Below, piece after piece: positions 2,550-17,043 of a DNA stretch of 64,000 nucleotides (position 1 is its first letter; each line of letters starts with the position of its first letter). Both the position numbers and the translations under genes were made by a program. The stretch lies in the NCBI RefSeq assembly GCF_024347095.1, contig NZ_AP024903.1:186001-250000 (forward strand), written 5' to 3'. The notes beneath the pieces were generated by a model, which was not told the origin of the DNA, ran no database searches, and saw nothing but the letters and a program-made list of their open reading frames with translations. The DNA is from Vibrio rhizosphaerae. Lineage in GTDB: Bacteria; Pseudomonadota; Gammaproteobacteria; Enterobacterales; Vibrionaceae.

Positions 2550-4082
2550 ATGGATATAAATAAAGATAGCATAATTAAAATATTTATAATTTCGTTTTTG
2601 TTTGTAATGTTATTGTTTTATTTTCAACATAATAAAGAATTCAGCCTTTGGGATGAAGGGTATCTTTGGTATGGTGCAAAGCAAACCTATTTGGGGCAAG
2701 TTCCATTAAGAGATTTTATGGCATATGATCCTGGACGATATTATTGGTCTGCTTTCTTCATGTATTTATTGGACAATACTGGATTAATAACGTTAAGGTT
2801 ATCTATTGCTGTATTTCAATTTTTTGGAATGTTCTGCTTTTTATTATTAATTTCAAAATCTAGACCTAATAAAAATACCGGCTTCTTATTCTTAATTGTT
2901 TCTGCAGTGATAGCATCTTTTTGGATGCACCCAAGACATAAAATTTTTGATGTTGTTTTGTCTATTTTTCTTGTAGCTAATTTGGTCTATTTATTAACTT
3001 CACCTCATATAAAAAAGATATTTATAAGTGGTATTTTTCTAGGACTGATAGCTTTTTTTGGTCGAAATCACGGTTTCTATGGATTAATAGCAAGTATTCT
3101 ATCTATTATTTGGGTCGCTATTATATATAAAGACGAATTTAATATAATCAAATCACTATTTATATTCGGCTTGGGAGTAATCGTTGGTTATTCTCCAATG
3201 ATTTTCATGATATTGTTTGTTTCTGATTTTTATAATGCATTCTGGGATAGTATTCTATTTTTAATTCAATTAGGACGGACAAATATACCTTTACCCATCC
3301 CGTGGATATGGACATTAAATCTTGGTAACTTGTCAGTAAGTGATTCTATTAGAGAAGTTTTTGTTAGTTTATTTCTTACAGGAATGATCCTTTATGGTAT
3401 TGGAGGGATTGTATATATAGTACTAGCAATAATAAAAAATAAGCCTGTTAAGCCATTTCTTGTTGCTACAGTATTACTTACAATACTTTATTGTCACTTT
3501 TATCTTTCTAGAGCGGATATTCCTCATTTAGCTCAAAGTATTTTTCCTTTCTTACTCGGTATTCTCTGCTATATCAATAGATTATCAGAAAGATTCAGGT
3601 GGATTTTAGTTGTAGTAGTCTGTGTTGTTAGTATCTGGATTATGTATAAGTACAAACCATATTGGCAATGCAAAGATGTATGCTCTAGTGTCAATATACA
3701 AGGTGATAACATTTATGTTAATAAATATGTTGCTAGTGATATATCCTTATTAAAAAAACTCAAAAAAAATTATTCTTCAGAAAGAGGAACTTCACTCATT
3801 GTTCCTTTCTGGCCTGGTGCCTACGCCTTGTTAGATCAAGTATCTCCTATTTGGGAAATATATTCATTATTTCCTCGTGATGCTGTATTTGAAAATAGAG
3901 AGATAGAAAAAATCAAAGCAAAAGATGTTGGTTTTGTTTTTATATATGATTATCCTTTGGATGGACAAGACAAATTCAGATTTAAAAACACACATCCATT
4001 ACTATATGATTATATAGTAAATAATTTTGAAGAAATAGATCATAGTGCTTATGAACATTATAGTATATTTAAACATAAATGA
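2550..4082 (+). CDS. GT-C type membrane glycosyltransferase-like protein
   Basis: A 510-residue protein with about ten or more hydrophobic segments. The first periplasmic loop carries WDEGYLWYG. The acidic DE pair in loop 1 is the expected catalytic signature of GT-C enzymes (ArnT/PMT/GT39-GT83 type), which use polyprenyl-phosphate sugars at the periplasmic face. A soluble C-terminal stretch of about 130 residues follows the last membrane segment, as in ArnT-like proteins. It probably adds a side sugar or substituent after flipping of a lipid-linked donor. The donor synthase could be the GtrB-like gene at 12.2 kb. The assignment rests on topology and the DE motif, not close similarity. Confidence 0.62.
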   Translation: MDINKDSIIKIFIISFLFVMLLFYFQHNKEFSLWDEGYLWYGAKQTYLGQVPLRDFMAYDPGRYYWSAFFMYLLDNTGLITLRLSIAVFQFFGMFCFLLLISKSRPNKNTGFLFLIVSAVIASFWMHPRHKIFDVVLSIFLVANLVYLLTSPHIKKIFISGIFLGLIAFFGRNHGFYGLIASILSIIWVAIIYKDEFNIIKSLFIFGLGVIVGYSPMIFMILFVSDFYNAFWDSILFLIQLGRTNIPLPIPWIWTLNLGNLSVSDSIREVFVSLFLTGMILYGIGGIVYIVLAIIKNKPVKPFLVATVLLTILYCHFYLSRADIPHLAQSIFPFLLGILCYINRLSERFRWILVVVVCVVSIWIMYKYKPYWQCKDVCSSVNIQGDNIYVNKYVASDISLLKKLKKNYSSERGTSLIVPFWPGAYALLDQVSPIWEIYSLFPRDAVFENREIEKIKAKDVGFVFIYDYPLDGQDKFRFKNTHPLLYDYIVNNFEEIDHSAYEHYSIFKHK

Positions 4083-4138: not shown

Positions 4139-5221
4139 ATGAAATTTGATGAAATAATAAATATGAATCCATTTTTTACGCATATTGATAAAAAAATTAA
4201 TTTTCAATTTGATAAATTTATGGAGTTAACAGATTTTCACAAAAAACATTGCACTGAATATAGTAAAATTCTTCAGTCAATGCATTTTGATATACACTCT
4301 TGTAAATCTATCGAGCAGATTCCTTATATTCCGGTTCAATTATTTAAAGAATATGATCTTAAGAGTATTTCTGATGAGGATGTTTTTAAAGTTATGACCT
4401 CTTCAGGTACGACTGGTCAGAGAGTCTCTAAAATATTCCTAAATAAAGAAACTGCGTCTCAACAGACAAAGGTATTATCTGCTTCGGTTAATTCCTTTAT
4501 TGGGAAAAAAAGAATGCCAATGCTCATAATTGATTCTCCATCTGTATTGAGAGATAGAGCTAATTTTTCTGCTAGAGGTGCTGGGATATTAGGATTCTCT
4601 ATATTTGCTAGGGAAAAAGTCTTTGCATTGAATGATGATATGACATTGAATGTAGATGGCATTTTAAGTTTTCTGAGAAAGTATGAATCTACCCCTATTT
4701 TTCTGTTTGGGTTTACCTACATTATATGGTTACATTTTGTTAAGCAGTTAATCGATCTTCATATTGATATTGACTTATCCAAAGGAATATTATTTCACGG
4801 TGGAGGCTGGAAAAAATTAGTTGAGCACTCTGTGAGTGAAGAGCATTTTAGAGATATATTAAATAAAAATTTCTCCCTTAGAAATGTTCATAATTATTAT
4901 GGCATGGTTGAACAAACAGGTTCAATATTTATTGAATGTGAATATGGTCATATGCATACGTCTATTTTTAACGATGTTCTTGTTCGAAGTACTAGAGATC
5001 TTAGCGTATTACCTCCTCATCACAAAGGGATTATACAAGTTTTCTCCATTCTTCCCAGCTCCTACCCGGGCCATTCTCTGCTGACAGAGGATGAAGGAGA
5101 AATTATCGGCCTTGATGGGTGTCCTTGTGGTCGCACTGGTACTCACTTTAAAATTTATGGACGTCTTAAAAATGCAGAACTTAGAGGGTGTAGTGATACA
5201 TATGAAAAGCCTGAAAAATAA
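4139..5221 (+). CDS. LuxE-like acyl-protein synthetase (acyl-adenylating)
   Basis: A 360-residue protein close to LuxE in length. VMTSSGTTGQRVSKIFL near residues 85-100 is the phosphate-binding loop of the LuxE/PaaK branch of adenylate-forming enzymes, and NYYGMVEQTG later fits the acyl-adenylate motif. LuxE activates a carboxylic acid as acyl-AMP and passes it to LuxC. The next gene here is a LuxC homologue, so the pair should convert an acid to an aldehyde. No luxA or luxB is present, so this is not a bioluminescence operon. The closest parallel I know is the LuxC/LuxE-like RfbN in the V. cholerae O1 rfb locus, linked to tetronate synthesis. AAGGA lies about 14 bases upstream of the ATG. 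Confidence 0.82.
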   Translation: MKFDEIINMNPFFTHIDKKINFQFDKFMELTDFHKKHCTEYSKILQSMHFDIHSCKSIEQIPYIPVQLFKEYDLKSISDEDVFKVMTSSGTTGQRVSKIFLNKETASQQTKVLSASVNSFIGKKRMPMLIIDSPSVLRDRANFSARGAGILGFSIFAREKVFALNDDMTLNVDGILSFLRKYESTPIFLFGFTYIIWLHFVKQLIDLHIDIDLSKGILFHGGGWKKLVEHSVSEEHFRDILNKNFSLRNVHNYYGMVEQTGSIFIECEYGHMHTSIFNDVLVRSTRDLSVLPPHHKGIIQVFSILPSSYPGHSLLTEDEGEIIGLDGCPCGRTGTHFKIYGRLKNAELRGCSDTYEKPEK

Positions 5222-6413
5222 TGTGAATTTTAAAACAATCCCTTCTAACTTTGATGATGTTCTAAATCTTGCACCTCTTAATATATTTGATGACATTGTT
5301 TTAGATTTTTTCGATGAAATATCGAAGAATGTACTGAAATCAGTTGAGTCGAGAAGTTATCCTGATTTGGCATCATTTGCTTTTTTATGTAGAAAGAGAC
5401 ATCTGAATAAATTAAAGAATGACTATTCATCTCCTCATAAAGTAAAGCGGGTAGGGCGGGGTATCAGTCTACATTTTACTCCGTCTAATGTACCGTTGAA
5501 TTTTGCATATAGTTTACTCGCAGGACTTTTATCTGGAAATGTTTGTTTGATTCGAATGTCTTCTAGACGATTTGAACAAGCCGAATATTTGACTAAAATA
5601 GTAAAAGATATTTTAGATATAGGAAAGTTTAAAAAAATACAAAATTATGTTCATTTATTTAAATATGAACACAATAATGAAATAACAGAGTATTTAACTA
5701 GTTTATGTGATATTCGAGTTGTTTGGGGTAGTGATGATACAATTAAACTACTTCGTAGTTTCGCTCTTCAACCTAAAGCTTATGATATAACATTTTCTGA
5801 TCGTTATTCATTTTGTATTATGGATGCAATGGCTATTATAAGTGAAGAAAATGTTTCTAAATTAGCCAGTGATTTTTATAATGATACATTATTCTTTGAC
5901 CAAAATGCATGTACGTCTCCTAAGCTTATTTATTGGATTGGTTCTGAGGTACAAATTGATCAAGCTAAAGATAAGTTTTGGAAAACCTTTCATGAATATT
6001 GTGAAGCTAAGCAGTATATAAACCAGAACAATATGGTTGTTGAAAAACTTGTTAAACAGCATATGTGTGCTGTGGAATTAGACGGGTATTCTTATAATAC
6101 AACTGGCGTTTGTTTTAATCGCACTACAATCAAAAAAATTCCTGATAACTTCGAACATTTCACATCATCAGGTGGACTTTTTCTTGAGTATAGTAGCAAG
6201 GATTTCTCAGCATTGAATCAACATATTTCCCGTAAATTACAGACGATTACATACTTTGGTATTAGTTCTGATGAGTTATTCAATAACCTATCTACTCGTG
6301 TGACTTTAGGAGTGGATCGCATTGTTCCTGTTGGTCGGGCATCTGATTTTTCTCTAATTTGGGATGGTTATGACTTAATTCGGCAGATGAGTAAAACAAT
6401 AAGTATTCTATAG
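5202..6413 (+). CDS. LuxC-like acyl reductase
   Basis: About 403 residues. HFTPSNVPLNFAYSLLAGLL and NVCLIRMSSRR match the NADPH/substrate region of LuxC, and FFDQNACTSPKLIYW contains the catalytic cysteine (about residue 237) of the acyl-enzyme intermediate. LuxC reduces a thioester-bound acyl group to an aldehyde with NADPH. It overlaps the LuxE-like gene by 20 bases, so translation is probably coupled. The frame extends upstream to 5091, but that part overlaps luxE coding and looks unlike the family. ATG 5202 or GTG 5193 (AGAGGG 5 bases upstream) are the likely starts. In this operon it probably makes an aldehyde for sugar decoration. Confidence 0.82.
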   Translation: MKSLKNNVNFKTIPSNFDDVLNLAPLNIFDDIVLDFFDEISKNVLKSVESRSYPDLASFAFLCRKRHLNKLKNDYSSPHKVKRVGRGISLHFTPSNVPLNFAYSLLAGLLSGNVCLIRMSSRRFEQAEYLTKIVKDILDIGKFKKIQNYVHLFKYEHNNEITEYLTSLCDIRVVWGSDDTIKLLRSFALQPKAYDITFSDRYSFCIMDAMAIISEENVSKLASDFYNDTLFFDQNACTSPKLIYWIGSEVQIDQAKDKFWKTFHEYCEAKQYINQNNMVVEKLVKQHMCAVELDGYSYNTTGVCFNRTTIKKIPDNFEHFTSSGGLFLEYSSKDFSALNQHISRKLQTITYFGISSDELFNNLSTRVTLGVDRIVPVGRASDFSLIWDGYDLIRQMSKTISIL

Positions 6414-6424
6414 AGGGTGTTATC

Positions 6425-7150
6425 ATGGATGTTATAGATGCATATTGGGAACAGAGAAATCTCAATCTTAAAACGTATGAATTAATTTTTAATGATGCTG
6501 ATAATATTGAATTGTATGATGTTTGGTTCGACAGTGTTAAAAGTCATGCAGACTATATTGTTTCGAAAGTACCTGTTGGCCATCCTCAATTGTGCAATGA
6601 TCTTTTATCAAATGGTTTTTCCTTCATTGAAATGATTACTGTTGTGTCAGTTAATCAACTTCCAACGTTATCCAATATACAGCAGAGAATTATGAAAAAA
6701 ATCTCATATACTGAAATGACTGATGAGGATGTGGAAGTACTGTATTCAGAAATTAGAAAAGGACTTTTTAAAACAGATCGTATTGCTATGGAATCTGGAT
6801 TGGGTATCGAAAAGTCTATAAGACGCTATATAGGTTGGCTTTCTGATGAGAAGGCTAGGGGAGCTCGATTCTATCGAATTAATTTTAATGATGAGTATGC
6901 CGGTTTTTTCGTATTAGGAACGATGAAAAACAATAAAATGAGTTCTATATTAGCTGGCATATTTGAATCATATCAGAAATATGCAATAGGTTTTTTTATG
7001 AACTATTTGGCATATCAAGAGGCTTTCTCACAAGGCGCTAAGGCAGTTAAAACGTCTTTCTCGTCAAACAATAGAGGAGCGTCCTCTATACACTATAGTA
7101 TTGCATGTAACTTGCATGAACAATATTATGTCCTATCTAAAATGGTCTGA
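6425..7150 (+). CDS. GNAT-family acyltransferase, possibly WecD-like
   Basis: A 241-residue protein. Its C-terminal half has the order of a GNAT fold: FYRINFNDEYAGFFVLGTM (beta4-like), then a conserved small-residue region, then TSFSSNNRGASSIHYSIACNL, like the N-x-x-A-x-x-x-Y end of WecD (dTDP-Fuc4N acetyltransferase). The N-terminal half resembles the degenerate N-domain of WecD-type enzymes. With a WecE-type aminotransferase at 15.9 kb, it could transfer an acyl group to the 4-amino group of a dideoxy sugar. The acyl donor could be the ACP-bound product of the neighbouring genes rather than acetyl-CoA. That acyl identity is inference. Confidence 0.6.
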   Translation: MDVIDAYWEQRNLNLKTYELIFNDADNIELYDVWFDSVKSHADYIVSKVPVGHPQLCNDLLSNGFSFIEMITVVSVNQLPTLSNIQQRIMKKISYTEMTDEDVEVLYSEIRKGLFKTDRIAMESGLGIEKSIRRYIGWLSDEKARGARFYRINFNDEYAGFFVLGTMKNNKMSSILAGIFESYQKYAIGFFMNYLAYQEAFSQGAKAVKTSFSSNNRGASSIHYSIACNLHEQYYVLSKMV

Positions 7151-7208
7151 CTACCGATTGGTCGTAGGTCAATAGAAATAAAAACTTTAATATTCCAAAG
7201 GTAACTAT

Positions 7209-7445
7209 ATGTCTAATCAAGAAAAGTACGCTCAAGCATTTATTGATACATTCGGTATAACACAAGAAAACCTTGTTGGTTTGAAGTATCAAGACATCAA
7301 TGAATGGGATAGTGTTGGCCATATGAATCTCATGACGGTTTTAGAGGATGAATTTGATATTGAGATGGATATTGATGATATCACTGATTTTTCTAGCTAT
7401 GAGGAAGGACAGAAAATTCTTCAGAAATATGGTGTAGATTTTTAA
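7209..7445 (+). CDS. acyl carrier protein
   Basis: A 78-residue acidic protein. NEWDSVGHMNLMTVLEDEF carries the phosphopantetheine attachment serine (Ser35) in a DSV version of the DSL motif, followed by the helix-II pattern that binds partner enzymes. Dedicated ACPs in O-antigen loci carry special acyl groups; V. cholerae O1 RfbK is one example. It sits between the GNAT acyltransferase and a hotdog dehydratase, 2 bases before the latter. It therefore very likely tethers the intermediate handled by the LuxE, LuxC, dehydratase and ligase neighbours. A holo-ACP synthase is not in the window and would be supplied by the host. Confidence 0.88.
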   Translation: MSNQEKYAQAFIDTFGITQENLVGLKYQDINEWDSVGHMNLMTVLEDEFDIEMDIDDITDFSSYEEGQKILQKYGVDF

Positions 7446-7447
7446 TT

Positions 7448-7921
7448 ATGGGACAACAGCCATTAACATTTGATACCCCGGGTATACTCGCATCCCAGCA
7501 GAATCGTTATCCTCTTCTATTTGTTGATAAAATTATTGAAGCTGTCCCTGGTGTGTCTGCTGTGGGAGTGAAAAACTTCACTTATAATGAGTGGTTTTTC
7601 CCTGCTCATTACGAAGATGATCCAAATGTTCCTGGGTTTATACTCGTGGAGTGTTTGGTCCAAACTTTTATCATGACTTTCTTAAGTAAAGACGAGTATA
7701 AAGGTAGTAAAACTAACTTTCTCGATTTGGATGGCGTGAGATTCCGCCGAAAGGTTGTCCCTGGTGACACTCTAATAATTAATGCGACACTTGAGTCATT
7801 CCGGCGTGGTATCGCGAAAGGTGTTGCTGAAGGTACAGTAAATGGTGAGTTTGCTGTTTCAGCTAGATTTACTGTTTCCGTTCCTTCCGTCTTTGAGAAA
7901 TTCATCCCCAATAAGAAGTGA
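7448..7921 (+). CDS. FabZ-like hotdog 3-hydroxyacyl-ACP dehydratase
   Basis: A 157-residue single hotdog domain. NRYPLLFVDKIIEAVPG and NEWFFPAHYEDDPNVPGFILVECLVQ align with FabZ. The catalytic His (about 54) and Glu (about 68) are present at the expected spacing. FabZ enzymes dehydrate 3-hydroxyacyl-ACP, or hydrate enoyl-ACP in reverse. It directly follows the ACP gene with a 2-base gap. The usual GHFPG motif is altered to AHYEDD, so the substrate may not be a normal fatty acyl chain. It may instead act as a thioesterase-like or hydratase enzyme on the dedicated ACP. Confidence 0.78.
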   Translation: MGQQPLTFDTPGILASQQNRYPLLFVDKIIEAVPGVSAVGVKNFTYNEWFFPAHYEDDPNVPGFILVECLVQTFIMTFLSKDEYKGSKTNFLDLDGVRFRRKVVPGDTLIINATLESFRRGIAKGVAEGTVNGEFAVSARFTVSVPSVFEKFIPNKK

Positions 7922-7928
7922 GTCTACG

Positions 7929-9713
7929 ATGCGTGTAGCCGACTATATTTTTGATAAGCTTGCGTCTATTGGTGTTAAAACACCGTTTGTTGTCACGGGA
8001 CGAGGTGCCCTTTTCCTTGATGATGCAATAGCTAAGCGAGATGATTTTGAGCCTTGTTTTGTTCATCACGAGCAGAGTGCATCTTTTGCGGCTATTGCTG
8101 CAAGTGAGGTGACCGGTACGATAGGATGTGCTGTTGTTTCTACGGGGTGTGCATCAACGAATGCACTAACGGGTGTTTTGTCTGCATGGCAAGATGGAAT
8201 TCCAGCTATTTTTATCTCTGGTCAGAATTCACTTAATGAAACTACACGTTTTACTCAAAGTGGTATTCGAACATATGGCCAACAAGAAGCAGATATAATT
8301 GATATAGTTGGATCTATCACGAAATATTCGGTGATGATAACTGAACCAGATTCAATTAGATATGAGCTTGAAAAAGCACTATATCTTGCAGAAGAAGGTC
8401 GGAAAGGACCTGTGTGGATTGATGTCCCTCTTGATATCCAGAATATGAGAGTGGAACCTGATTTAATGATTGGGTACGAGCCATCAGAGAGTTTTATACA
8501 ACCATCAGAAAATGATATTAATACCATTGCAAGTGACTTAACTCATGCTGAAAGGCCAGTCATTATGATTGGTAGTGGGATTAAACATTCAAAGACGGCT
8601 AATGAACTAGCTCAATTTGCAGAAATCCATAAAATCCCGGTTGTTTATACATTTGCGGCTGCTGATGCTTATGGTACAAAGCAACCGATGTCGATAGGAT
8701 CGATTGGTTCTATGGGATGCTCCAGAGCTGGTGCTTTTGCTGTTCAAAATTCTGACTATCTACTTGTGCTTGGTTCTAGACTTACATCCATGACTACTGG
8801 GACTGATTATTGTAAATTTGGACGGAACGCAAAAATTGTTGTTGTCGATATCGATCGACAAGAGCATAACAAAGATGGTGTAAAAATAGATCAATTTGTA
8901 CACTCTGACTTGAAGCTATTCTTTCGAGCATTGGAAGGCGTTGAAATCAAGCCTAGTACAATGAGTCATCACTGGCTAGAAAAGTGTTTGCATTGGAAGA
9001 AGCTGTTTAAAAATACGCATAAAGTTAATACTCAGCAGGAGTGTGTTGACTTGTATGATTTAGCTGATTCTTTATCTGAGCAAATGCCCAAAGATGCTGT
9101 TTTTGTTTGTGATTCTGGATTTGCTGATGTCATTCTCCCAACTAATATAGATTTTGGAAAAGACCAGACTTGTGTTCATCCTGTGTCTCAGGGGGCTATG
9201 GGGTTTGCTGTTCCTGCTGCGTTAGGCATTGAAAAGTGCTCCAAAAGAGCAACTATTGTTGTCGTTGGCGATGGTTCCATTATGATGAATCTTCAAGAGC
9301 TTCAAACAATAGCAACAGAAAAATCCAATATTAAGATTTTTGTCATCAATAATAATGCATATGCAATTATTCGAAGAAGGCAGAAAGAGCTATTTAGAAA
9401 AAGAACAATTGGCACTGATTCTAGCAATGGTGTGACATGCCCTGAATTTAAAAATGTTGCAGAATGTTTTGGCTTGGACTACCACTTCATCGAGAAAACC
9501 TCTGATCTATCTCAAGGGATCCAGACAGTATTAAGTATGGAAGGACCTGTCTTGTGCGAGATTATGGGATTAGAAGATCAACAATATGTAGAAGTTGCTT
9601 ACGCAAAAACTGAATCCAAGAAATTCGTTAGGCGTCCGTTAGAGGATCAGTGGCCATTTTTGGATAGAGCGACTTTCTTAGAAGAGATGATTATTGATCC
9701 AATTGATCAATAA
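7929..9713 (+). CDS. ThDP-dependent enzyme, acetolactate synthase family
   Basis: 594 residues, the normal length for the acetolactate synthase/pyruvate decarboxylase superfamily. The N-domain has VHHEQSASFAAIAASEVTG with the ylide-forming Glu (about 48). The middle Rossmann-like domain spans about 190-330. The C-domain has the ThDP motif VVGDGSIMMNLQ ending in INNNAYA. The frame runs upstream to 7842, but the ATG at 7929 fits the family start (MRVADYIFDKL) and has AAGTGAG about 8 bases upstream. In polysaccharide loci such enzymes attach two-carbon units from pyruvate to keto-sugars (YerE in yersiniose synthesis) or ligate aldehydes. It lies between the ACP/dehydratase and the NeuB-like gene. 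Confidence 0.82.
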   Translation: MRVADYIFDKLASIGVKTPFVVTGRGALFLDDAIAKRDDFEPCFVHHEQSASFAAIAASEVTGTIGCAVVSTGCASTNALTGVLSAWQDGIPAIFISGQNSLNETTRFTQSGIRTYGQQEADIIDIVGSITKYSVMITEPDSIRYELEKALYLAEEGRKGPVWIDVPLDIQNMRVEPDLMIGYEPSESFIQPSENDINTIASDLTHAERPVIMIGSGIKHSKTANELAQFAEIHKIPVVYTFAAADAYGTKQPMSIGSIGSMGCSRAGAFAVQNSDYLLVLGSRLTSMTTGTDYCKFGRNAKIVVVDIDRQEHNKDGVKIDQFVHSDLKLFFRALEGVEIKPSTMSHHWLEKCLHWKKLFKNTHKVNTQQECVDLYDLADSLSEQMPKDAVFVCDSGFADVILPTNIDFGKDQTCVHPVSQGAMGFAVPAALGIEKCSKRATIVVVGDGSIMMNLQELQTIATEKSNIKIFVINNNAYAIIRRRQKELFRKRTIGTDSSNGVTCPEFKNVAECFGLDYHFIEKTSDLSQGIQTVLSMEGPVLCEIMGLEDQQYVEVAYAKTESKKFVRRPLEDQWPFLDRATFLEEMIIDPIDQ

Positions 9714-9729
9714 TATGAGGTAATTAGTT

Positions 9730-10764
9730 ATGTCTATCATTAAGTTAAATAATGAACGATTTATTGGAGGGCAACACGAACCTTATTTTGTTGCAGAACT
9801 AAACACCAGTCATTTTGGCGATGTTTCTATTGCTAAAGAAATGATTAATGCAGCGAAAGAGTGTGGCTGTGACTGTGTAAAGTTTCAGTCGTGGACAACA
9901 GATTCGTTATATTCGAAAACTTATTATGAGCATAATCCTATAGCTAAACGATTTGTAAAAAAGTACAGTTTATCAGAAAAAGACTTAAAAGATTTGGCTA
10001 TTTACTGTGATGATAAAGGAATTGGATTTTCCTCAACGCCTTATTCTTTAAGAGAAGCCGAGTTTCTGGTGAATGAGTGTAATCCTCATTTCCTAAAAAT
10101 TGCATCAATGGAGTTAAATAATAAACTTTTTTTGAGACAGCTTGGTAAGCTTGATACGGCAGTCGTTTTATCTACAGGGATGGGTGAGTTTAGTGAAATT
10201 GAATTTGCTGTGGACGAACTTATTGACGCAGGCGTTCAAAACTTATGTGTTCTACACTGTGTTTCAATCTATCCTGCAAAATCGGAAATGATTAATCTTA
10301 ATAATATCATTTCATTGAGGGAGCGGTTCCCGAGTTTATCCATAGGTTATTCCGATCATACTATTGGATGTGAAGTCGCATCTGCTTCAATTGCTCTTGG
10401 CGCTAGCTTGATAGAAAAGCATTTTACCTTAGATAACCAAAAAATAGGTATGGACAACCAGATGGCGACTATGCCTGAAGAAATGAAGTTACTGGTTGAA
10501 CAATGTAAGTCCGTTCATAAAGCGTTAGGTTCATACAAGCGTATCGTAACAGACGATGAGTATGAGCAGCGCAAAAATATGCGTCGTAGCGTTGTAGCTG
10601 CAAGAGATTTAGAAGAAGGGACAATATTAACAGAGTCCGATATTGTGCTGAAGCGACCAGGATATGGGATTCCAGCAGACACTTATGAGAGCGTTATTGG
10701 GAAAAGAATTACGAAAAAAGTTTTAGCAGATCATTTGATACTTCCTGAAACATTTAGCAAGTAG
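9730..10764 (+). CDS. NeuB/SpsE-like PEP-condensing synthase with SAF domain
   Basis: 344 residues, the usual NeuB length. The TIM-barrel motifs are in order: FVAELNTSHFGD, CDCVKFQSW, FSSTPYS, KIASMELNN, VLSTGMGEF, LHCVSIYPA, GYSDHTIG and EKHFTLD. The C-terminal antifreeze-like SAF domain runs from about residue 285 (RRSVVAARDLEEGTIL to VIGKRI). NeuB enzymes condense PEP with an aldose to give nine-carbon sialic, legionaminic or pseudaminic acids. No NeuA, NeuC, LegF or PseBCFGHI homologue is in the window. The substrate may therefore be a different aldehyde, possibly the LuxC product. The rest of a nonulosonate pathway could also lie left of the window. Confidence 0.85.
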   Translation: MSIIKLNNERFIGGQHEPYFVAELNTSHFGDVSIAKEMINAAKECGCDCVKFQSWTTDSLYSKTYYEHNPIAKRFVKKYSLSEKDLKDLAIYCDDKGIGFSSTPYSLREAEFLVNECNPHFLKIASMELNNKLFLRQLGKLDTAVVLSTGMGEFSEIEFAVDELIDAGVQNLCVLHCVSIYPAKSEMINLNNIISLRERFPSLSIGYSDHTIGCEVASASIALGASLIEKHFTLDNQKIGMDNQMATMPEEMKLLVEQCKSVHKALGSYKRIVTDDEYEQRKNMRRSVVAARDLEEGTILTESDIVLKRPGYGIPADTYESVIGKRITKKVLADHLILPETFSK

Positions 10765-10770
10765 GTTTTG

Positions 10771-12174
10771 ATGTTTTTATTTCCAGAGAGTAAATCAAAA
10801 ATTATTACTGAAGATGGGAATGAATTTTTATACTCTGATCTTATGAAATTAGGTAAAGAAATTCATGATTTAATTAATGAACCTACTTTAGTATTATGTC
10901 AGGTTGATAATACCCTAGGAGGATTGTTAGGGTATTTGACTTTTGCTTATGGAGTACATGTTCCTTTAATACTTGGTGTTGATATTCATGATTCTCATCT
11001 AGATGATATAATTAAAAAATATCAGCCAGAGTTTTGTTGGGTACCTGAACGATTAGTACCAGCTCTTTATAAGAACAAGGATATTGTTTTTTCTAAATAT
11101 GGTTATTGTCTTATTCGTTTAGGTAAGGAAAAGCATAAGAAATTACCAGAAGAACTCTGCTTACTTGCATCAACGTCTGGTTCTACCGGTAGCCCTAAAT
11201 TTGTTCGGCAATCAAGAAATAATATATTTTCTAATACTAAATCTATTACTGAATATTTGAATTTAAGTGAAGAAGATGTAGCAATAACGTCCTTACCAAT
11301 AACATATACATATGGTATGTCCATCATAAATTGTCAGATACTCTCTGGTGGAGATATTTTATTAACGAATAAATCTATTGTACAGAAAGAATTCTGGGAA
11401 CAATTTAGATGCTATAATATTTCTATATTAGCTGGTGTTCCTTATACATTTGAAATGATGGATCGCCTTCGTGTATTCCGGAACGACCTACCACATCTTA
11501 AGAAAATATTACAGGCCGGTGGTAAATTAAATGAACATCTCCAAAGCAAAATCGCTCAATATTGTGACGCAAATGGGAAAGATCTCTTTGTCATGTATGG
11601 ACAGACTGAAGCAACCACAAGAATGTCTTATCTTCCTCCTGAACACTGCTTAAGAAAAATTGGTAGTATTGGCATCGCGATTCCTGATGGTCGTTTTCAG
11701 ATAATAGACCACTCTGGTAATGTTATAGAGCGTGCAGGTGATTGTGGAGAGCTCGTTTATATAGGACATAATGTATGTCTTGGCTATGCTGAATGTAGAG
11801 AAGATTTATATCTCCCTAATCAATGGAATGGTTATTTGAAAACTGGAGATTTAGCCTGCTTTGATGAAGATAATTATTTTTATATTAAAGGACGTTTAAA
11901 AAGAATTTTAAAGCATTTTGGTTTACGTATTAACCTTGATGAGATTGAACATCTAATTCAAATGAGATTCACTTCTAATAAGCTAGCGTGTGTAGATTTT
12001 GATGACTTTTTAATTATATTCCATGAAGGTATAATCGAAAATGAAAAATTATTAAAATATCTATCAGAAGTTACAGACGTGAAACGTGCTGGTGTGAAAA
12101 TAATAGCTTTAGAGTCAATCCCAATACTTCCTAATGGGAAGGTAAACTATCAAAATCTTAGAACATTAGTTTAG
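10771..12174 (+). CDS. ANL-superfamily acyl-CoA/ACP ligase
   Basis: 467 residues. The adenylation motifs are clear: LLASTSGSTGSPKFV (A3), MYGQTEATTRM (A5), YLKTGDLACF (A7), KGRLKRILKHFGLRINLDEIE (A8) and PNGKVNY with the catalytic lysine (A10). It should activate a carboxylic acid as acyl-AMP and load CoA or the dedicated ACP. V. cholerae O1 RfbL is a comparable acyl ligase beside an ACP. The start is the ATG at 10771 with TAGG upstream; a TTG three bases earlier is less likely. It ends the acyl-chemistry block; the next gene is a polyprenyl-phosphate glycosyltransferase. Confidence 0.85.
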   Translation: MFLFPESKSKIITEDGNEFLYSDLMKLGKEIHDLINEPTLVLCQVDNTLGGLLGYLTFAYGVHVPLILGVDIHDSHLDDIIKKYQPEFCWVPERLVPALYKNKDIVFSKYGYCLIRLGKEKHKKLPEELCLLASTSGSTGSPKFVRQSRNNIFSNTKSITEYLNLSEEDVAITSLPITYTYGMSIINCQILSGGDILLTNKSIVQKEFWEQFRCYNISILAGVPYTFEMMDRLRVFRNDLPHLKKILQAGGKLNEHLQSKIAQYCDANGKDLFVMYGQTEATTRMSYLPPEHCLRKIGSIGIAIPDGRFQIIDHSGNVIERAGDCGELVYIGHNVCLGYAECREDLYLPNQWNGYLKTGDLACFDEDNYFYIKGRLKRILKHFGLRINLDEIEHLIQMRFTSNKLACVDFDDFLIIFHEGIIENEKLLKYLSEVTDVKRAGVKIIALESIPILPNGKVNYQNLRTLV

Positions 12175-12238
12175 TATAGAGATGATATGAGACATATTAT
12201 TTTTTATAATAATTATTTAGATGGAAAATTTATACCTA

Positions 12239-13213
12239 ATGAATATTAGTGTTATTATACCTGTATATGGTGCTCCAAATATTTTGGAAGAACTCGTATC
12301 CAGACTAAGCAAAGTATTAACTTCTATTACAACTGATTTTGAAATTATTCTTGTTAATGATGCTTGCCCTAAAGGCTCTTGGAGTGTTATATCAAATATT
12401 ATTAAACAAGGAAATCGTAATGTTGTTGGTATGAATCTTTCTCGGAATTTTGGTCAACATAGAGCTATTGCGGCTGGATTAAATTATTGTTCTGGTGATT
12501 ATGCGATTGTTATGGACTGTGATCTTCAAGATGTTCCGGAGGAGATACTAAAGTTAGTAGCGAAAGCACAAGAAGGATATGATGTTGTATTTGGAAGACG
12601 AGCTGTACGACAAGACTCTTTCTTTAAAAAATTCACTGCCAACTTGTACTATCGGTTATTTAACTACTTAACTGGATTTACGACAGACCCTGCGGTTGCT
12701 AATTTTAGTATTATATCTAGAAAGGTTATTGATAGTTACAATACAATGCCTGAACAAAATCGTCCTTATAGTTATTTTATTAGCTGGTTAGGGTTTAATC
12801 GGCAAGATATTGACATTCAACATTCTGCTAGACCAGAAGGAAAAAGTTCCTATACATTCAGTAAATTACTAGAATTTGCTATTGATAATATTATTTCAGA
12901 AACTAACAGACCATTAAAGATAGGAATAAAAATTGGATTTATTTTTTCTCTTCTATCCTTTCTATTTGGTGTTTTTCTCTGTATTAAATGGTATTTAGGT
13001 GATGTGGTAGAGGGGTGGACAAGTGTTGTCGTCTCTATATTTTTTACATCAGGTATGATAATGGCAAATTTTGGCTTACTTGGTCTTTATTTGGGTAAAA
13101 CATTTGATGAAACAAAAAGAAGGCCTCTATATATTATATCTGATATAGAGAGATCAAGCACAAATAATGCTGATAAAGAATTAAGCATTGATATTAATAC
13201 TGCCGGAAAATAA
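12239..13213 (+). CDS. polyprenyl-phosphate glycosyltransferase (GtrB/ArnC/DPM1-like)
   Basis: About 324 residues. NISVIIPVYG, ILVNDACPKGSW, NLSRNFGQHRAIAAGL and VMDCDLQDVPEEI are typical of the DPM1/GtrB/ArnC group, and two C-terminal membrane helices (about 230-310) anchor it. These enzymes move a sugar from a nucleotide donor to undecaprenyl phosphate on the cytoplasmic face. The next gene is a small SMR-like membrane protein and the one after that a GT-C protein. Together they form a complete donor synthase, flippase and periplasmic transferase set. ATG 12239 gives the family-like start; ATG 12221 adds six residues. Confidence 0.86.
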   Translation: MNISVIIPVYGAPNILEELVSRLSKVLTSITTDFEIILVNDACPKGSWSVISNIIKQGNRNVVGMNLSRNFGQHRAIAAGLNYCSGDYAIVMDCDLQDVPEEILKLVAKAQEGYDVVFGRRAVRQDSFFKKFTANLYYRLFNYLTGFTTDPAVANFSIISRKVIDSYNTMPEQNRPYSYFISWLGFNRQDIDIQHSARPEGKSSYTFSKLLEFAIDNIISETNRPLKIGIKIGFIFSLLSFLFGVFLCIKWYLGDVVEGWTSVVVSIFFTSGMIMANFGLLGLYLGKTFDETKRRPLYIISDIERSSTNNADKELSIDINTAGK

Positions 13214-13598: not shown

Positions 13599-15908
13599 TT
13601 GTTATATAGTAATTTTAGGCTATTTCACTCTTTTAATATAAGTAAATATCGATATTGCTTATTACTGTTCACAATAATTTTTTTGATTTTTACAAGATAT
13701 TTTTGGCTAGATGGAGAGGTCATTTCTCCTCACTATCAAGCAGAAGAACTTGCCAGTAATACTCAAGTTATCAATTTAAAAGAGAATCGGAAGTTTAGTG
13801 ATTTTTCTAGTGTTTTTATCCCTGAAATAACTGGTTTTTTAAAAGGTAAACATTCTGGATGGTTAAGTCTATGGACAAATAAGAATGAACTGGGAAGACC
13901 TTTATACCATCTCTCCGGTTTTAGCCCTGCATATGTTCTAAGTTTAATTATTTCCAAATTCGTTGATAATGCATATATATATATAACAATATTGTCATTA
14001 TCTATTGCTTATTTATCTGGTATATTTATTCTTTTATTTTGTAGAGAATGTAATTTAGCTCCATTGTCGGGGCTAGTAGCTGCTGTTTGCTTAACTTTTT
14101 CTCCTCCCTTCATGTATTGGCTTACTTTCCCCATGTTTTTATCAGTATGGTGTTGGTCTGCTTGTATACTATGGGCAATTCAGCGCATCTATAAAAAGAG
14201 AGATGCTTGGGGATGGTTAGGGTTATCATTTGGGTGCTATAGCTTATTAATGACAGGATATCCTCAGCCGATAGTATTTCATATGTATTTGATTGGAGGC
14301 TATAGCACTTTATTAATGTATAAAATTTATCGAAAGTCCATTAAAGATTTTCGATTGACTTTTTATTGGGGCGGTTCTGCTATAATTGTTGGTGCTATTT
14401 GTGCTGCTCCTGTTTACTTAGATTTAGCATATAATTTATCGCAATCAGCTAGAGTCTCTCCTGACGTTTCTTTCTTTACCAAAACTTTACCTGATTTTCA
14501 TGGTGTTTGGGAATTCGTCAAATTCTTGATTCTTTCCTTCATACCAGAAATTTATGGGAACACTATTCAACTACCTTATCCTCTACATTATGATGGACTA
14601 AGTACCACATTATTTAGTTTGTTTATGTTGATTTTTTCTTGCATGTTTTCATTTAAATCTTTGAATGGTTATTCATATTATTGGTGGGCTTTTATTATTA
14701 TAGCCATCATGTTTACTTTTATACCATCGTTATATGTGTTAGGTGTTGATTTCCTAGGTTTTAATTTATCAAGGAGCAATCCTTTAGCTACGCTTCTTCT
14801 TCCTATTATAATTATTATGGCATTTAGTGTGGATGCACTGTTAAAATATAAAGATTTTAATAGAATAAAAAGAGCATTGTATGTTGCTGGGTCTATTTCA
14901 TTGCTTTTCTTATTTTTAGGTGTATTTTATGGTGTTCACTTATCGTTAAAGATATATTATACAAAAGTTATTTTTATGGCTCTTGTTATAATTTTTTCAA
15001 TGATTACCTTTCGTAGCTATAAAGAGTATTACACCTGCTCTATTACTGCCGTTTTGTTGATATTGGTGTTTATTTTTTCTCCTGCTAAAGTGTTTCATAA
15101 AAAGCTTGATGAAATTATTATGACATCTGATTTAATAAAAATAATTCAAAATAATATAGGAAATAGTAATCTGGCAATTATTTCTTCTAATGTTAATCTT
15201 TTACCACCAAATATTAATGTGATTGTAGGGATTAACTCTATTCATAGTTATAATAGTCTGTCTTCTGATAAGTATCATTATCTTATTAAAGAGTTAGGTG
15301 GAAGCTCAATTACTTATGGTAGAATAAATAAATTTATAAATCCTGATTATAGTAGTGACTATTTTTGGATGAGTAATATAGGAATGATTCTGAGTAGAGA
15401 TAAGTTAGATAGTCCGAATCTCAGCTATATTGATCACATGTCTGATTTATACGTCTATAAAGTTAATTCAGATTCAAGAATGGGACGTTCTATCCAAGTT
15501 ATAGTAGATAAAGATATTGTAATAACTGACAATGATGTTAGCATAACTCATTTAAAAGACTCTCATCATAAAATTTTCAAACCTAAAGTTCAGTTATTGT
15601 ATGATGATTTATTAGAATACAAAGTGGAAACATACAATGCAGAATCTATATTTATATTGAGCCAAAAATATCATCGAGACTGGGTTGCAGAGTTAAAAAC
15701 ATCTCAAGGTTGGTTACCAGCAAAGACATTGATTGTTAATCATGTTTTTCAAGGGGTACTAATTCCTAAGGGTGTGAAACAAATAAGACTTAAATTCAAG
15801 CCTTATGTGACTTATAGTTGGGTAGTACATGCCTTTTGGGGAGTACTGTTTCTGTTGTTGGTTTCATTATTGTTATATAAAAAATATTTTAGAGGAAGGC
15901 ATGGATAA
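13599..15908 (+). CDS. large multi-pass membrane protein, YfhO/GT-C-like
   Basis: A 769-residue protein. There are about 12 hydrophobic segments across residues 15-480, a soluble periplasmic-looking domain (about 490-730) and a final TM helix with a basic tail (YKKYFRGRHG). The layout matches YfhO and other GT-C glycosyltransferases that take polyprenyl-phosphate sugars outside the membrane. It follows the donor synthase and flippase genes, so it is the candidate transferase of that set. The best start visible is TTG at 13599. Its 3' end overlaps the aminotransferase by 8 bases. The sugar and acceptor are unknown. Confidence 0.6.
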   Translation: MLYSNFRLFHSFNISKYRYCLLLFTIIFLIFTRYFWLDGEVISPHYQAEELASNTQVINLKENRKFSDFSSVFIPEITGFLKGKHSGWLSLWTNKNELGRPLYHLSGFSPAYVLSLIISKFVDNAYIYITILSLSIAYLSGIFILLFCRECNLAPLSGLVAAVCLTFSPPFMYWLTFPMFLSVWCWSACILWAIQRIYKKRDAWGWLGLSFGCYSLLMTGYPQPIVFHMYLIGGYSTLLMYKIYRKSIKDFRLTFYWGGSAIIVGAICAAPVYLDLAYNLSQSARVSPDVSFFTKTLPDFHGVWEFVKFLILSFIPEIYGNTIQLPYPLHYDGLSTTLFSLFMLIFSCMFSFKSLNGYSYYWWAFIIIAIMFTFIPSLYVLGVDFLGFNLSRSNPLATLLLPIIIIMAFSVDALLKYKDFNRIKRALYVAGSISLLFLFLGVFYGVHLSLKIYYTKVIFMALVIIFSMITFRSYKEYYTCSITAVLLILVFIFSPAKVFHKKLDEIIMTSDLIKIIQNNIGNSNLAIISSNVNLLPPNINVIVGINSIHSYNSLSSDKYHYLIKELGGSSITYGRINKFINPDYSSDYFWMSNIGMILSRDKLDSPNLSYIDHMSDLYVYKVNSDSRMGRSIQVIVDKDIVITDNDVSITHLKDSHHKIFKPKVQLLYDDLLEYKVETYNAESIFILSQKYHRDWVAELKTSQGWLPAKTLIVNHVFQGVLIPKGVKQIRLKFKPYVTYSWVVHAFWGVLFLLLVSLLLYKKYFRGRHG

Positions 15909-17043
15909 ATCTAATAAAAATATACCATTTAACTGGCCATATATGACCGGGAAGGAGCTTTACTATATCTCTAATGCTCATTTTAACGGTGCATTAGCGG
16001 GTGATGGTCCATTTACAAAAAAATGTCATAGATGGCTTGAAGAACATACAACGTGTGAGAAAGCACTTCTAACACATTCATGTACAGCTTCTTTAGAGAT
16101 GACCGCTTTATTGTTAGATATACAGCCTGGTGATGAAATCATCATGCCTTCTTATACTTTTGTTTCTACTGCGAATGCTTTTGTTCTTCGAGGTGGTGTT
16201 CCTGTATTTGTTGATATTAGAAGCGATACATTAAATATTGATGAGATGCTAATTGAATCAGCAATTACTTCTAAGACAAAAGCAATTGTGGTTGTGCACT
16301 ATGCTGGTGTTGCTTGTGAAATGGACACTATCATGAATATCGCAAGAAAGCATAACTTGAAAGTAATTGAAGATGCAGCTCAGGGGGTCATGTCTAAGTA
16401 TAAGGGAAGGGCTCTTGGGAGTATTGGTGATTTAGGTGCTTATAGTTTTCATGAAACAAAAAATGTAATCTCCGGTGAAGGAGGCGCTTTGCTTATAAAT
16501 GACCCTGAGATGTCTCTCCAAGCTGAAATTATACGTGAAAAAGGGACAAATCGGAGTCAATTTTTTAGAGGTGAGGTAGATAAGTATACTTGGCAGCATA
16601 TCGGTTCCTCTTTTTTGCCTGGTGAAATCATTGCAGCTTTTCTTTGGGCACAGTTGGAAGAAGCTTTATCAATTACCCAGAATAGATTGTCTAGCTGGGA
16701 GCATTATCATAACTTGCTAGCACCTTATGAGAAACAAGGTCTCTTGAGACGTCCTATCATTCCTAATGAATGTGAGCATAATGCTCATATGTATTATATA
16801 TTGTTAAATGAAGATGTGGACCGGCAGTCGGTTTTAGATAGCTTTAGAAATCATGGCATTTCTGCTGTTTTTCATTATGTTCCTCTTCACTCTTCCCCTG
16901 CTGGTCAGAATTGTGGAACAACTTCTGGTTCTATGAATAATACAAACTCATTGTCAGAAAAGATCATTAGACTCCCATTATGGGTTGGTTTAACAACAGA
17001 GCAACAGGAGCGAGTGGTTTCTGTATTGGATAAATTTTCTTAA
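15901..17043 (+). CDS. wecE: WecE/RffA-like dTDP-4-amino-4,6-dideoxygalactose transaminase
   Basis: 380 residues (E. coli WecE is about 376). It is a DegT/DnrJ/EryC1 fold enzyme with PSYTFVSTANAFVLRG, IEDAAQGV and YSFHETKNVISGEGG, where Lys187 is the PLP Schiff-base lysine. WecE transfers an amino group from glutamate to dTDP-4-keto-6-deoxyglucose to give dTDP-Fuc4N. No rmlA or rmlB is in the window, so the substrate must come from elsewhere. With the GNAT gene at 6.4 kb this suggests an N-acylated 4-amino sugar. The ATG at 15901 has AGAGGAAGG immediately upstream, a clear ribosome site. It may instead be a second Fuc4N-type enzyme beside the one for enterobacterial common antigen. Confidence 0.82.
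   Translation: MDKSNKNIPFNWPYMTGKELYYISNAHFNGALAGDGPFTKKCHRWLEEHTTCEKALLTHSCTASLEMTALLLDIQPGDEIIMPSYTFVSTANAFVLRGGVPVFVDIRSDTLNIDEMLIESAITSKTKAIVVVHYAGVACEMDTIMNIARKHNLKVIEDAAQGVMSKYKGRALGSIGDLGAYSFHETKNVISGEGGALLINDPEMSLQAEIIREKGTNRSQFFRGEVDKYTWQHIGSSFLPGEIIAAFLWAQLEEALSITQNRLSSWEHYHNLLAPYEKQGLLRRPIIPNECEHNAHMYYILLNEDVDRQSVLDSFRNHGISAVFHYVPLHSSPAGQNCGTTSGSMNNTNSLSEKIIRLPLWVGLTTEQQERVVSVLDKFS

What the first reader, a model, noticed from the sequence alone, without database searches (positions are those of the whole stretch)
4139..12174. LuxC/LuxE-ACP-ThDP-NeuB-ligase run: a possible novel sugar-acyl or branched-acid pathway
Eight adjacent genes encode a LuxE-like ligase, a LuxC-like acyl reductase with its catalytic Cys, a GNAT acyltransferase, an ACP, a hotdog dehydratase, a ThDP carboligase, a NeuB-like PEP-condensing enzyme with SAF domain, and an ANL acyl ligase. 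The V. cholerae O1 rfbKLMNO genes (ACP, acyl ligase, LuxC/LuxE-like, acyltransferase) make the tetronate side group, so the base set is known. The ThDP, NeuB and hotdog genes are additional. LuxC makes an aldehyde, and aldehydes are natural substrates of ThDP and NeuB chemistry. I infer that an ACP-bound acid is reduced to an aldehyde, then joined to a pyruvate or PEP unit, and the product acylates a 4-amino sugar. No CMP-sialate genes are in the window, so a standard sialic acid route is not complete here.
Basis: partly seen in the sequence, partly recalled or inferred. Interest (0 to 1): 0.9.

Follow-up and report, generated by a model that had tools for sequence, protein, structure and literature searches.

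The report
PEP-and-thiamine route to sugar acyl group
A run of genes in a surface-sugar locus, found again in many unrelated bacteria, appears to build an unknown acid side group from an aldehyde with two enzymes normally used to make special sugars, and then to hang it on an amino sugar of the cell coat.

Summary

The ThDP enzyme is YerE/JanthE-like, but that family's CDP-sugar genes are missing and residues typical of its CDP-sugar branch are changed. The NeuB-like enzyme is no sialic acid synthase in context: no CMP-sialate synthetase was recognised in the genome, and a congener carries this NeuB beside a Leg/Neu-type locus with its own NeuB. In LuxE/LuxC loci NeuB (19) and pyruvate aldolases (7) never co-occur (0 of 27), as if both supply a 4-hydroxy-2-oxo acid to the ThDP enzyme.

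Product, ThDP acceptor and step order are unproven.

The parts
4139..5221 (+). LuxE-like acid-activating protein acylase
   Evidence: PF04443 E 3.7e-47; C-terminal Cys (C351) is Cys in 19 of 19 same-kind loci aligned; its role is recalled
5202..6413 (+). LuxC-like acyl reductase (ORF opens at 5091; start at 5202 likelier, not certain)
   Evidence: PF05893 E 1.6e-32; Cys C274 in 19 of 19
6425..7150 (+). WecD-like GNAT, likely dTDP-Fuc4N N-acyltransferase
7209..7445 (+). acyl carrier protein
   Evidence: weak PF00550; DS motif in 23 of 23 same-kind loci aligned
7448..7921 (+). FabZ-like hotdog dehydratase
   Evidence: FabA-like 9.1e-18, FabZ NF000582 110.2 vs cut-off 113; His54/Glu68 in 20 of 20
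7929..9713 (+). ThDP carboligase, YerE/JanthE-like, in the clade that holds the LuxE/LuxC-associated enzymes
   Evidence: nearest solved chains 8rph (321 bits) and 5ahk (234) ahead of plant acetolactate synthase (184); clade support 100, quick tree; residue signature
9730..10764 (+). NeuB-like PEP-condensing synthase with SAF domain
   Evidence: PF03102 9e-72; below NeuB and PseI equivalog cut-offs; own clade 96/99; residues conserved
10768..12174 (+). ANL acyl-ACP ligase
   Evidence: PF00501 2.1e-34; C-terminal Lys K458 in 19 of 19; that it loads the ACP is inferred
12221..13213 (+). family 2 glycosyltransferase, candidate for moving the acylated sugar
   Evidence: PF00535 3.8e-26; role inferred from position
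15829..17043 (+). WecE, dTDP-4-amino-4,6-dideoxygalactose transaminase (true start probably inside the ORF)
   Evidence: NF008687 621 bits vs cut-off 375

Best explanation
The genes make an unusual, C-C-extended hydroxy or keto acyl group and place it on the 4-amine of dTDP-Fuc4N for the O-antigen. LuxE activates a carboxylic acid and LuxC reduces it to an aldehyde. NeuB condenses the aldehyde with PEP to a 4-hydroxy-2-oxo acid. The YerE/JanthE-like ThDP enzyme decarboxylates this acid and adds the resulting acyl unit to a carbonyl that is not a CDP-keto-sugar. The ANL ligase loads the acid product on the ACP and FabZ removes water. The WecD-like GNAT transfers the acyl to dTDP-Fuc4N (made by RmlA, RmlB and WecE), and the sugar is built into a Wzm/Wzt-exported polysaccharide. 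Shown: gene set, conservation, conserved catalytic residues, WecE identity, WecD fold, no recognised CMP-sialate or CDP-glucose-dehydratase route. Inferred: all substrates, the order of ANL/FabZ relative to NeuB/ThDP, and the ThDP acceptor.
For: WecE over cut-off in the window and in six more loci (L006; L007, L012, L014, L019, L038). GNAT folds as WecD. GNAT is present in 9 of 11 loci with a WecE-type transaminase and 0 of 6 with another type only (assigned by me; L023, L033, L035 and L039 count as WecE-type by 50-63% identity alone; Fisher p 0.0023, or 0.007 without near-copies). A WecF-family gene is adjacent in L006 and L019. NeuB 19 / aldolase 7 / both 0 / neither 1 of 27 LuxE/LuxC loci. 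The aldolase representatives best match 4-hydroxy-2-oxovalerate aldolase, below its cut-off, or HpcH/HpaI. ErwE, a YerE-like enzyme, prefers 4-hydroxy-2-oxo acids as donors (PMC12247030, passages). All 19 LuxE/LuxC loci with NeuB also have ACP, ANL and ThDP. ThDP is directly followed by NeuB in all 24 loci. L134: presumed ACP, ANL, iron ADH, LuxE-LuxC fusion, an aldehyde-using family in the same slot.
Against: No product is known. This NeuB keeps an Arg and an Asp that I recall from the ManNAc pocket (R309 in 22 of 22, D242 in 22 of 23), so its substrate may be more sugar-like than a plain aldehyde. No ketoreductase is in the window's set, although FabG-like genes are near in some relatives. 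FabZ is missing in 4 of the 23 tabulated loci with this NeuB: three have a FabG-like gene nearby, the fourth (L038) starts inside the ThDP gene. L020 has ACP-FabZ-ThDP-NeuB but no LuxE/LuxC in about 17 kb; L021 has ACP-FabZ-ThDP followed by an ORF that is not NeuB. GNAT also occurs in five loci where no transaminase was seen (L025, L030, L031, L032, L036; L030 is short). Loci were mostly found through the ThDP gene and are not phylogenetically independent.
Confidence: 0.6

Rival explanations
1. The acyl group is the NeuB product itself (a 3-deoxy-2-oxo acid) or a simple acid, and the ThDP enzyme uses pyruvate to add only an acetyl unit; NeuB and ThDP act in parallel rather than in series.
For: YerE itself uses pyruvate (PMC12247030, passages); the ANL ligase could load any acid.
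Against: ThDP is directly followed by NeuB in all 24 loci, and NeuB and pyruvate aldolases exclude each other in LuxE/LuxC loci, which fits a donor relay better.
Confidence: 0.2
2. It is a branched-chain or higher-carbon sugar pathway: the ThDP enzyme adds a chain to dTDP-4-keto-6-deoxyglucose, as YerE does to a CDP-keto-sugar.
For: Closest solved relatives are YerE-like enzymes; an rmlB is encoded nearby; many more distant relatives sit with RfbF/G/H.
Against: RfbH-type gene (300 bits or more) in 1 of 27 LuxE/LuxC loci versus 33 of 55 others; CDP-glucose dehydratase (150 bits or more) in 2 of 27. The CDP-sugar branch has Asp, Arg, Tyr, Lys at four of five mapped positions in 32, 32, 33 and 34 of 34 rows; the window has Gln, Met, Thr, Glu; the fifth position does not separate the branches. 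It does not explain ACP, ANL, GNAT and WecE.
Confidence: 0.12
3. It is part of a nonulosonic (sialic-type) acid pathway.
For: NeuB family with a conserved active site.
Against: Single NeuB and no third CTP_transf_3 protein in the genome; none at all in G742, which may be incomplete. In L133 a separate NeuB over cut-off (497.9 vs 399.65), NeuC and LegC family stand beside this set. The window NeuB is under both cut-offs.
Confidence: 0.04

Closest known systems
ACP - ligase - LuxE - LuxC sugar-acyl modules (Aeromonas fgi group II, Enterobacteriaceae flagellin islands; V. cholerae O1 tetronate genes, recalled)
   Same: ACP, AMP-dependent ligase, LuxE and LuxC together in a glycan locus (PMC7874193 and PMC4875605, passages)
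   Different: Those have FabG, or (V. cholerae, recalled) an alcohol dehydrogenase; here NeuB, a YerE-like ThDP enzyme and FabZ. 'acetolactate' has 0 occurrences in the text of the first paper and 'thiamine' 0 in the second.
YerE-like ThDP carboligases (YerE, ErwE, JanthE)
   Same: Nearest solved relatives; donor use of 4-hydroxy-2-oxo acids known for ErwE (PMC12247030, passages)
   Different: Separate clade, no CDP-glucose dehydratase in the genome over cut-off, different residues at mapped JanthE hot spots
WecE / WecD / WecF of enterobacterial common antigen
   Same: WecE over cut-off, WecD fold, WecF-family gene adjacent in two relatives
   Different: WecD uses acetyl-CoA (recalled); here an ACP and a dedicated acyl gene set sit beside it; 13% identity to WecD over the structural alignment
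NeuB / PseI nonulosonic acid synthases
   Same: Family, SAF domain, PEP and metal residues
   Different: Own clade, under both equivalog cut-offs, no CMP-sugar partner recognised
F. psychrophilum 3,5-dihydroxyhexanoyl Qui2NAc4N genes
   Same: A dedicated ACP and acyltransferase are predicted to decorate a 4-amino sugar (PMC6519341, passages)
   Different: There ketoacyl-ACP synthases and a reductase are predicted to build the chain; no PEP or ThDP enzyme in the passages seen

Membership tests
N-acetylneuraminate synthase (TIGR03569) / pseudaminic acid synthase (TIGR03586) | scores over the curated equivalog cut-off | tested here: not met
   300.6 vs 399.65 and 237.6 vs 340.25
N-acetylneuraminate synthase / PseI | PEP and metal-binding residues of the NeuB active site | tested here: met
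   E23, K51, Q53, K123, Y181, H210, H231 invariant in 23 of 23 loci; roles recalled from N. meningitidis NeuB, positions from the alignment
N-acetylneuraminate synthase / PseI | CMP-nonulosonate synthetase in the genome | tested here: not met
   only two CTP_transf_3 hits, read by size as KdsB and GlmU
YerE-like ThDP carboligase | closest solved relatives are YerE-like; catalytic Glu and GDG motif | tested here: met
   That 8rph is JanthE and 5ahk the P. protegens YerE is recalled; the listing names neither
YerE-like ThDP carboligase | CDP-glucose dehydratase in the genome, to make the keto-sugar acceptor | tested here: not met
   0 of 7 hits over cut-off; RfbH was not searched genome-wide
Acetohydroxyacid synthase | over TIGR00118 cut-off and second Arg of the RFDDR motif | tested here: not met
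   303 vs 538.35; Met in that column, while two other ThDP proteins of the genome keep RFDDR; role of the Arg recalled
WecE (NF008687) | over equivalog cut-off | tested here: met
   621 vs 375
WecD | best structural match to TDP-fucosamine acetyltransferase over its whole length | tested here: met
WecD | recognised by a sequence family model | tested here: not met
   no NCBIfam hit for the window GNAT at 1e-3
Bioluminescence LuxE / LuxC | over NF052244 / NF052251 cut-offs | tested here: not met
   65.7 vs 550 and 66.4 vs 750; Pfam family membership met
ACP-ligase-LuxE-LuxC sugar-acyl module | the four genes together in a glycan locus | tested here: met
   ACP by motif and position
V. cholerae O1 tetronate operon | orthology to rfbKLMNO including the alcohol dehydrogenase | not tested
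   V. cholerae genes were not fetched; no alcohol dehydrogenase family among the hits of the eight genes (for two genes only the best 25 NCBIfam rows were shown)

The most novel reading that the evidence does not exclude
A widespread, patchily distributed pathway builds sugar-decorating acyl chains by a chemistry not used by fatty acid or polyketide synthases: an acid is reduced to an aldehyde, extended with PEP by a repurposed relative of sialic acid synthase, then joined to a second carbonyl by a repurposed YerE-type ThDP enzyme, and only then handed to an ACP. At least two versions exist, one with NeuB and one with a pyruvate aldolase, mostly with a transketolase-like pair.
Probability: 0.5. 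Interest if true: 0.85.

Novelty: new variant of a known kind. Interest (0 to 1): 0.72.

Why it matters
If right, a branch of the NeuB family does something other than make sialic-type sugars, so 'sialic acid synthase' labels on it are wrong (relatives here are labelled N-acetylneuraminate synthase or SpsE). It would give YerE-type ThDP enzymes a role outside branched sugars, a possible new source of tertiary-alcohol or hydroxyketone acids, and a directly testable chemical structure in a cultured strain, V. sinaloensis DSM 21326.

Tried and rejected
NeuB as query in genome contigs found nothing, probably because of the exact-word patterns; the ThDP query worked. Plasmid records: 102 with a NeuB match, all under 60% identity, best of the 15 listed 36.6%. 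A sequence profile of the GNAT against PDB gave only weak GNAT hits; the fold was needed. A second candidate WecF (L018 8327-9361) showed no similarity to the WecF-family gene of L006. A literal sialic acid route, a CDP-branched sugar and an ordinary acetolactate synthase were considered and rejected for the reasons in rivals and membership. In the Yersinia ruckeri review 'LuxC' is a reporter operon (passages). The ORF after ThDP in L021 has no PDB match and by eye looks like a glycosyltransferase.

Paper searches showed no description of this gene set. In 36, 37, 41 and 47 every paper found was listed; in some only 10 of 251, 10 of 17, 8 of 15 and 8 of 652. Most subscription papers and preprints are not held.

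Results against my reading: L020 lacks LuxE/LuxC and L021 lacks NeuB; L039 has neither NeuB nor aldolase (11 kb contig); outside LuxE/LuxC loci NeuB-type and aldolase-type genes do co-occur (L044, L076). L123 and L124 carry both NeuB and a transketolase-like gene, so the two versions are not cleanly separate. Two WecE-type loci lack the GNAT (L023; L038, whose contig starts inside the ThDP gene), and five GNAT loci show no transaminase.
Full report
WHAT IS THERE. The window lies at G000:C1:186001-250000 of a 4.56 Mb genome in two contigs. Eight + strand genes run from 4139 to 12174: LuxE, LuxC, a GNAT, an ACP, a FabZ-like hotdog, a ThDP enzyme, a NeuB-SAF protein and an ANL ligase. Homology suggests starts at 7929 for the ThDP enzyme and, less surely, 5202 for LuxC. 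Just left are genes read as rmlB, rmlA, rmlD, rmlC, wzm and a wzt with the Wzt_C domain. To the right are a family 2 glycosyltransferase, an EamA-like piece, a large protein without a Pfam hit and a DegT aminotransferase. That aminotransferase is WecE, the dTDP-Fuc4N transaminase, at 621 bits against a cut-off of 375.

NO SIALIC ACID ROUTE. The genome has one NeuB. CTP_transf_3 gives two hits, which by length and score I take for KdsB and GlmU. V. sinaloensis (G737) also has one NeuB and one CTP_transf_3 hit. The Lentisphaeria genome G742 has this NeuB plus a weak second hit and no CTP_transf_3 hit, though it may be incomplete. In L133, a congener found through LuxE, the set ACP-FabZ-ThDP-NeuB-MBL-ANL-LuxE-LuxC lies beside a Leg/Neu-type locus: its own NeuB (497.9 against 399.65), NeuC (475.6 against 235.9), LegC family (532.1 against 420), NeuD family (187.9 against 160.8) and a PseF-like protein below its cut-off. 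The two NeuB types therefore most likely do different jobs. In a tree this NeuB clade (support 96/99) excludes the N. meningitidis NeuB, the 8h2c PseI and the NeuB-like proteins of CDP-sugar loci (its 'para' rows L100, L102-L106, L109 and L110 are the same proteins fetched twice). The residues of the PEP and metal site are intact in 23 of 23 loci, and a pocket Arg and Asp are also kept.

THE CLUSTER IS CONSERVED. This NeuB follows ThDP in 21 of the 80 (L006-L020, L022-L025, L029, L038). L123 and L124 came from NeuB searches and L133 from LuxE, giving 24 loci; L011 and L017 have identical ThDP and NeuB rows and count separately here. ACP, ANL, LuxE, LuxC, ThDP and NeuB are all present in 20 of the 24, FabZ too in 17, and a GNAT hit as well in six (L006, L007, L012, L014, L019, L025). 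The four without LuxE/LuxC are L011, L016 and L022 (short or cut contigs) and L020, a real exception. L021 has ACP-FabZ-ThDP but its next ORF is not NeuB. Tree labels give nine phyla: Pseudomonadota, Bacillota, Verrucomicrobiota, Lentisphaerota, Thermodesulfobacteriota, Elusimicrobiota, Melainabacteria, Campylobacterota and Bacteroidota; several records are MAGs. The cluster is rare and patchy: a NeuB at E 1e-90 or better in 2 of 394 genomes of the order, at 1e-85 in 1 of 398 of the phylum and 2 of 391 of another class; LuxE at 1e-40 in 7 of 196 genomes of the genus, three at 55% identity or more. These figures include the query or centre genome, and the G1164 hit is, by contig number and position, the V. 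sinaloensis place.

THE CARBON-CARBON ENZYMES. The ThDP protein's nearest solved relatives are 8rph (321 bits) and 5ahk (234), ahead of acetolactate synthase (184); I identify these as JanthE and a Pseudomonas YerE from recall. YerE-like enzymes join 2-oxo acids to keto-sugars, and ErwE prefers 4-hydroxy-2-oxo acids as donors (PMC12247030, passages; PMC12188165, first of three parts read). In the tree a clade of 37 rows (SH-aLRT 100) holds the window and every LuxE/LuxC locus that entered the tree (27 rows with LuxE/LuxC, 10 without it in the stretch held; L029 was dropped); the other 45 locus rows, 34 of them with CDP-sugar genes, lie apart (quick method, long reference branches). RfbH-type genes are in 33 of 55 loci without LuxE/LuxC but 1 of 27 with it; NCBIfam confirms RfbF, RfbG and RfbH in representatives. 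At JanthE hot spots V121, P293, Y297 and K567 the CDP-sugar rows have Asp (32 of 34), Arg (32), Tyr (33) and Lys (34). The 23 NeuB-branch rows have mainly Gln (17), Met (12), no majority, and His (13); the window has Gln, Met, Thr and Glu. The fifth position, Y268, does not separate them. So the acceptor has probably changed. The genome holds two other ThDP proteins with the RFDDR motif of acetohydroxyacid synthases, so this one is probably not needed for that step.

WHY NeuB FITS. In 27 LuxE/LuxC loci NeuB (19) and pyruvate aldolases (7) exclude each other (0 with both, 1 with neither; Fisher p 9e-6, not corrected for kinship). The aldolase of L033 best matches 4-hydroxy-2-oxovalerate aldolase (85.6 bits, cut-off 229), that of L026 HpcH/HpaI. 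A different NeuB-like family and similar aldolases also accompany YerE-like enzymes in CDP-sugar loci, where both can occur together (L044, L076). The simplest reading is that NeuB, like the aldolase, supplies a 4-hydroxy-2-oxo acid for the ThDP enzyme. In L134, a congener with a nonulosonic-type locus, a 77-aa ORF (presumed ACP, no family hit), an ANL ligase, an iron alcohol dehydrogenase (below all cut-offs) and a LuxE-LuxC fusion stand in a row, with no such ThDP or NeuB; I examined one of four 33-34% LuxE loci. In Aeromonas a 3-oxoacyl-ACP reductase is in that module (PMC7874193, passages). So LuxC's aldehyde is either reduced or, here, extended.

MECHANISM AND LIMITS. Proposed: R-COOH to R-CHO (LuxE, LuxC); plus PEP to R-CHOH-CH2-CO-COOH (NeuB); minus CO2 and onto a second carbonyl (ThDP); loading (ANL, ACP); dehydration (FabZ); transfer to dTDP-Fuc4N (GNAT); glycosyl transfer and Wzm/Wzt export. 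Every substrate is inferred. FabZ is absent in L022, L123 and L124, which have FabG-like genes, and L123 and L124 mix NeuB with a transketolase-like gene.

NOVELTY. LuxE/LuxC/ACP/ligase sets in glycan loci, YerE-like enzymes and the Wec pathway are known. The combination, and the separate clades of NeuB and ThDP enzymes serving it, I did not find in the listings of the searches made.

Noticed in passing
L026-L028, L030-L037, L039: A sister cluster, mostly in Clostridia, pairs the ThDP clade with a pyruvate aldolase (10 of 12 loci), a split transketolase (10 of 12) and LuxE/LuxC (8 of 12), with NeuB in 0 of 12; some contigs are cut.
   Followed up: partly
L056, L058, L059, L071, L076, L082, L085: A second, distant NeuB-like family (about 25% identity) lies near YerE-like ThDP genes, mostly with CDP-sugar genes; the SAF-domain Arg column reads Ile in seven of the eight rows compared outside the window's kind, though several alignments end close to it.
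   Followed up: partly
L134:9191-11674: LuxE and LuxC fused in one 827-aa protein beside a nonulosonic-type locus and an iron alcohol dehydrogenase in a congener.
   Followed up: partly
L029:9250-17169: The cluster looks decayed in a Symbiopectobacterium: ThDP and LuxE match in two pieces each and the ligase match is cut short.
   Followed up: no
window:27554-52340: A second surface-polysaccharide locus to the right: YjbH, a five-SLBB Poly_export protein, a B12/radical-SAM protein, Wzx- and Wzy-like genes in a low-GC stretch (46-50 kb).
   Followed up: partly
window:13599-15908 and 2550-4082: Two large, hydrophobic proteins without a Pfam hit flank the operon and may act on the glycan.
   Followed up: no
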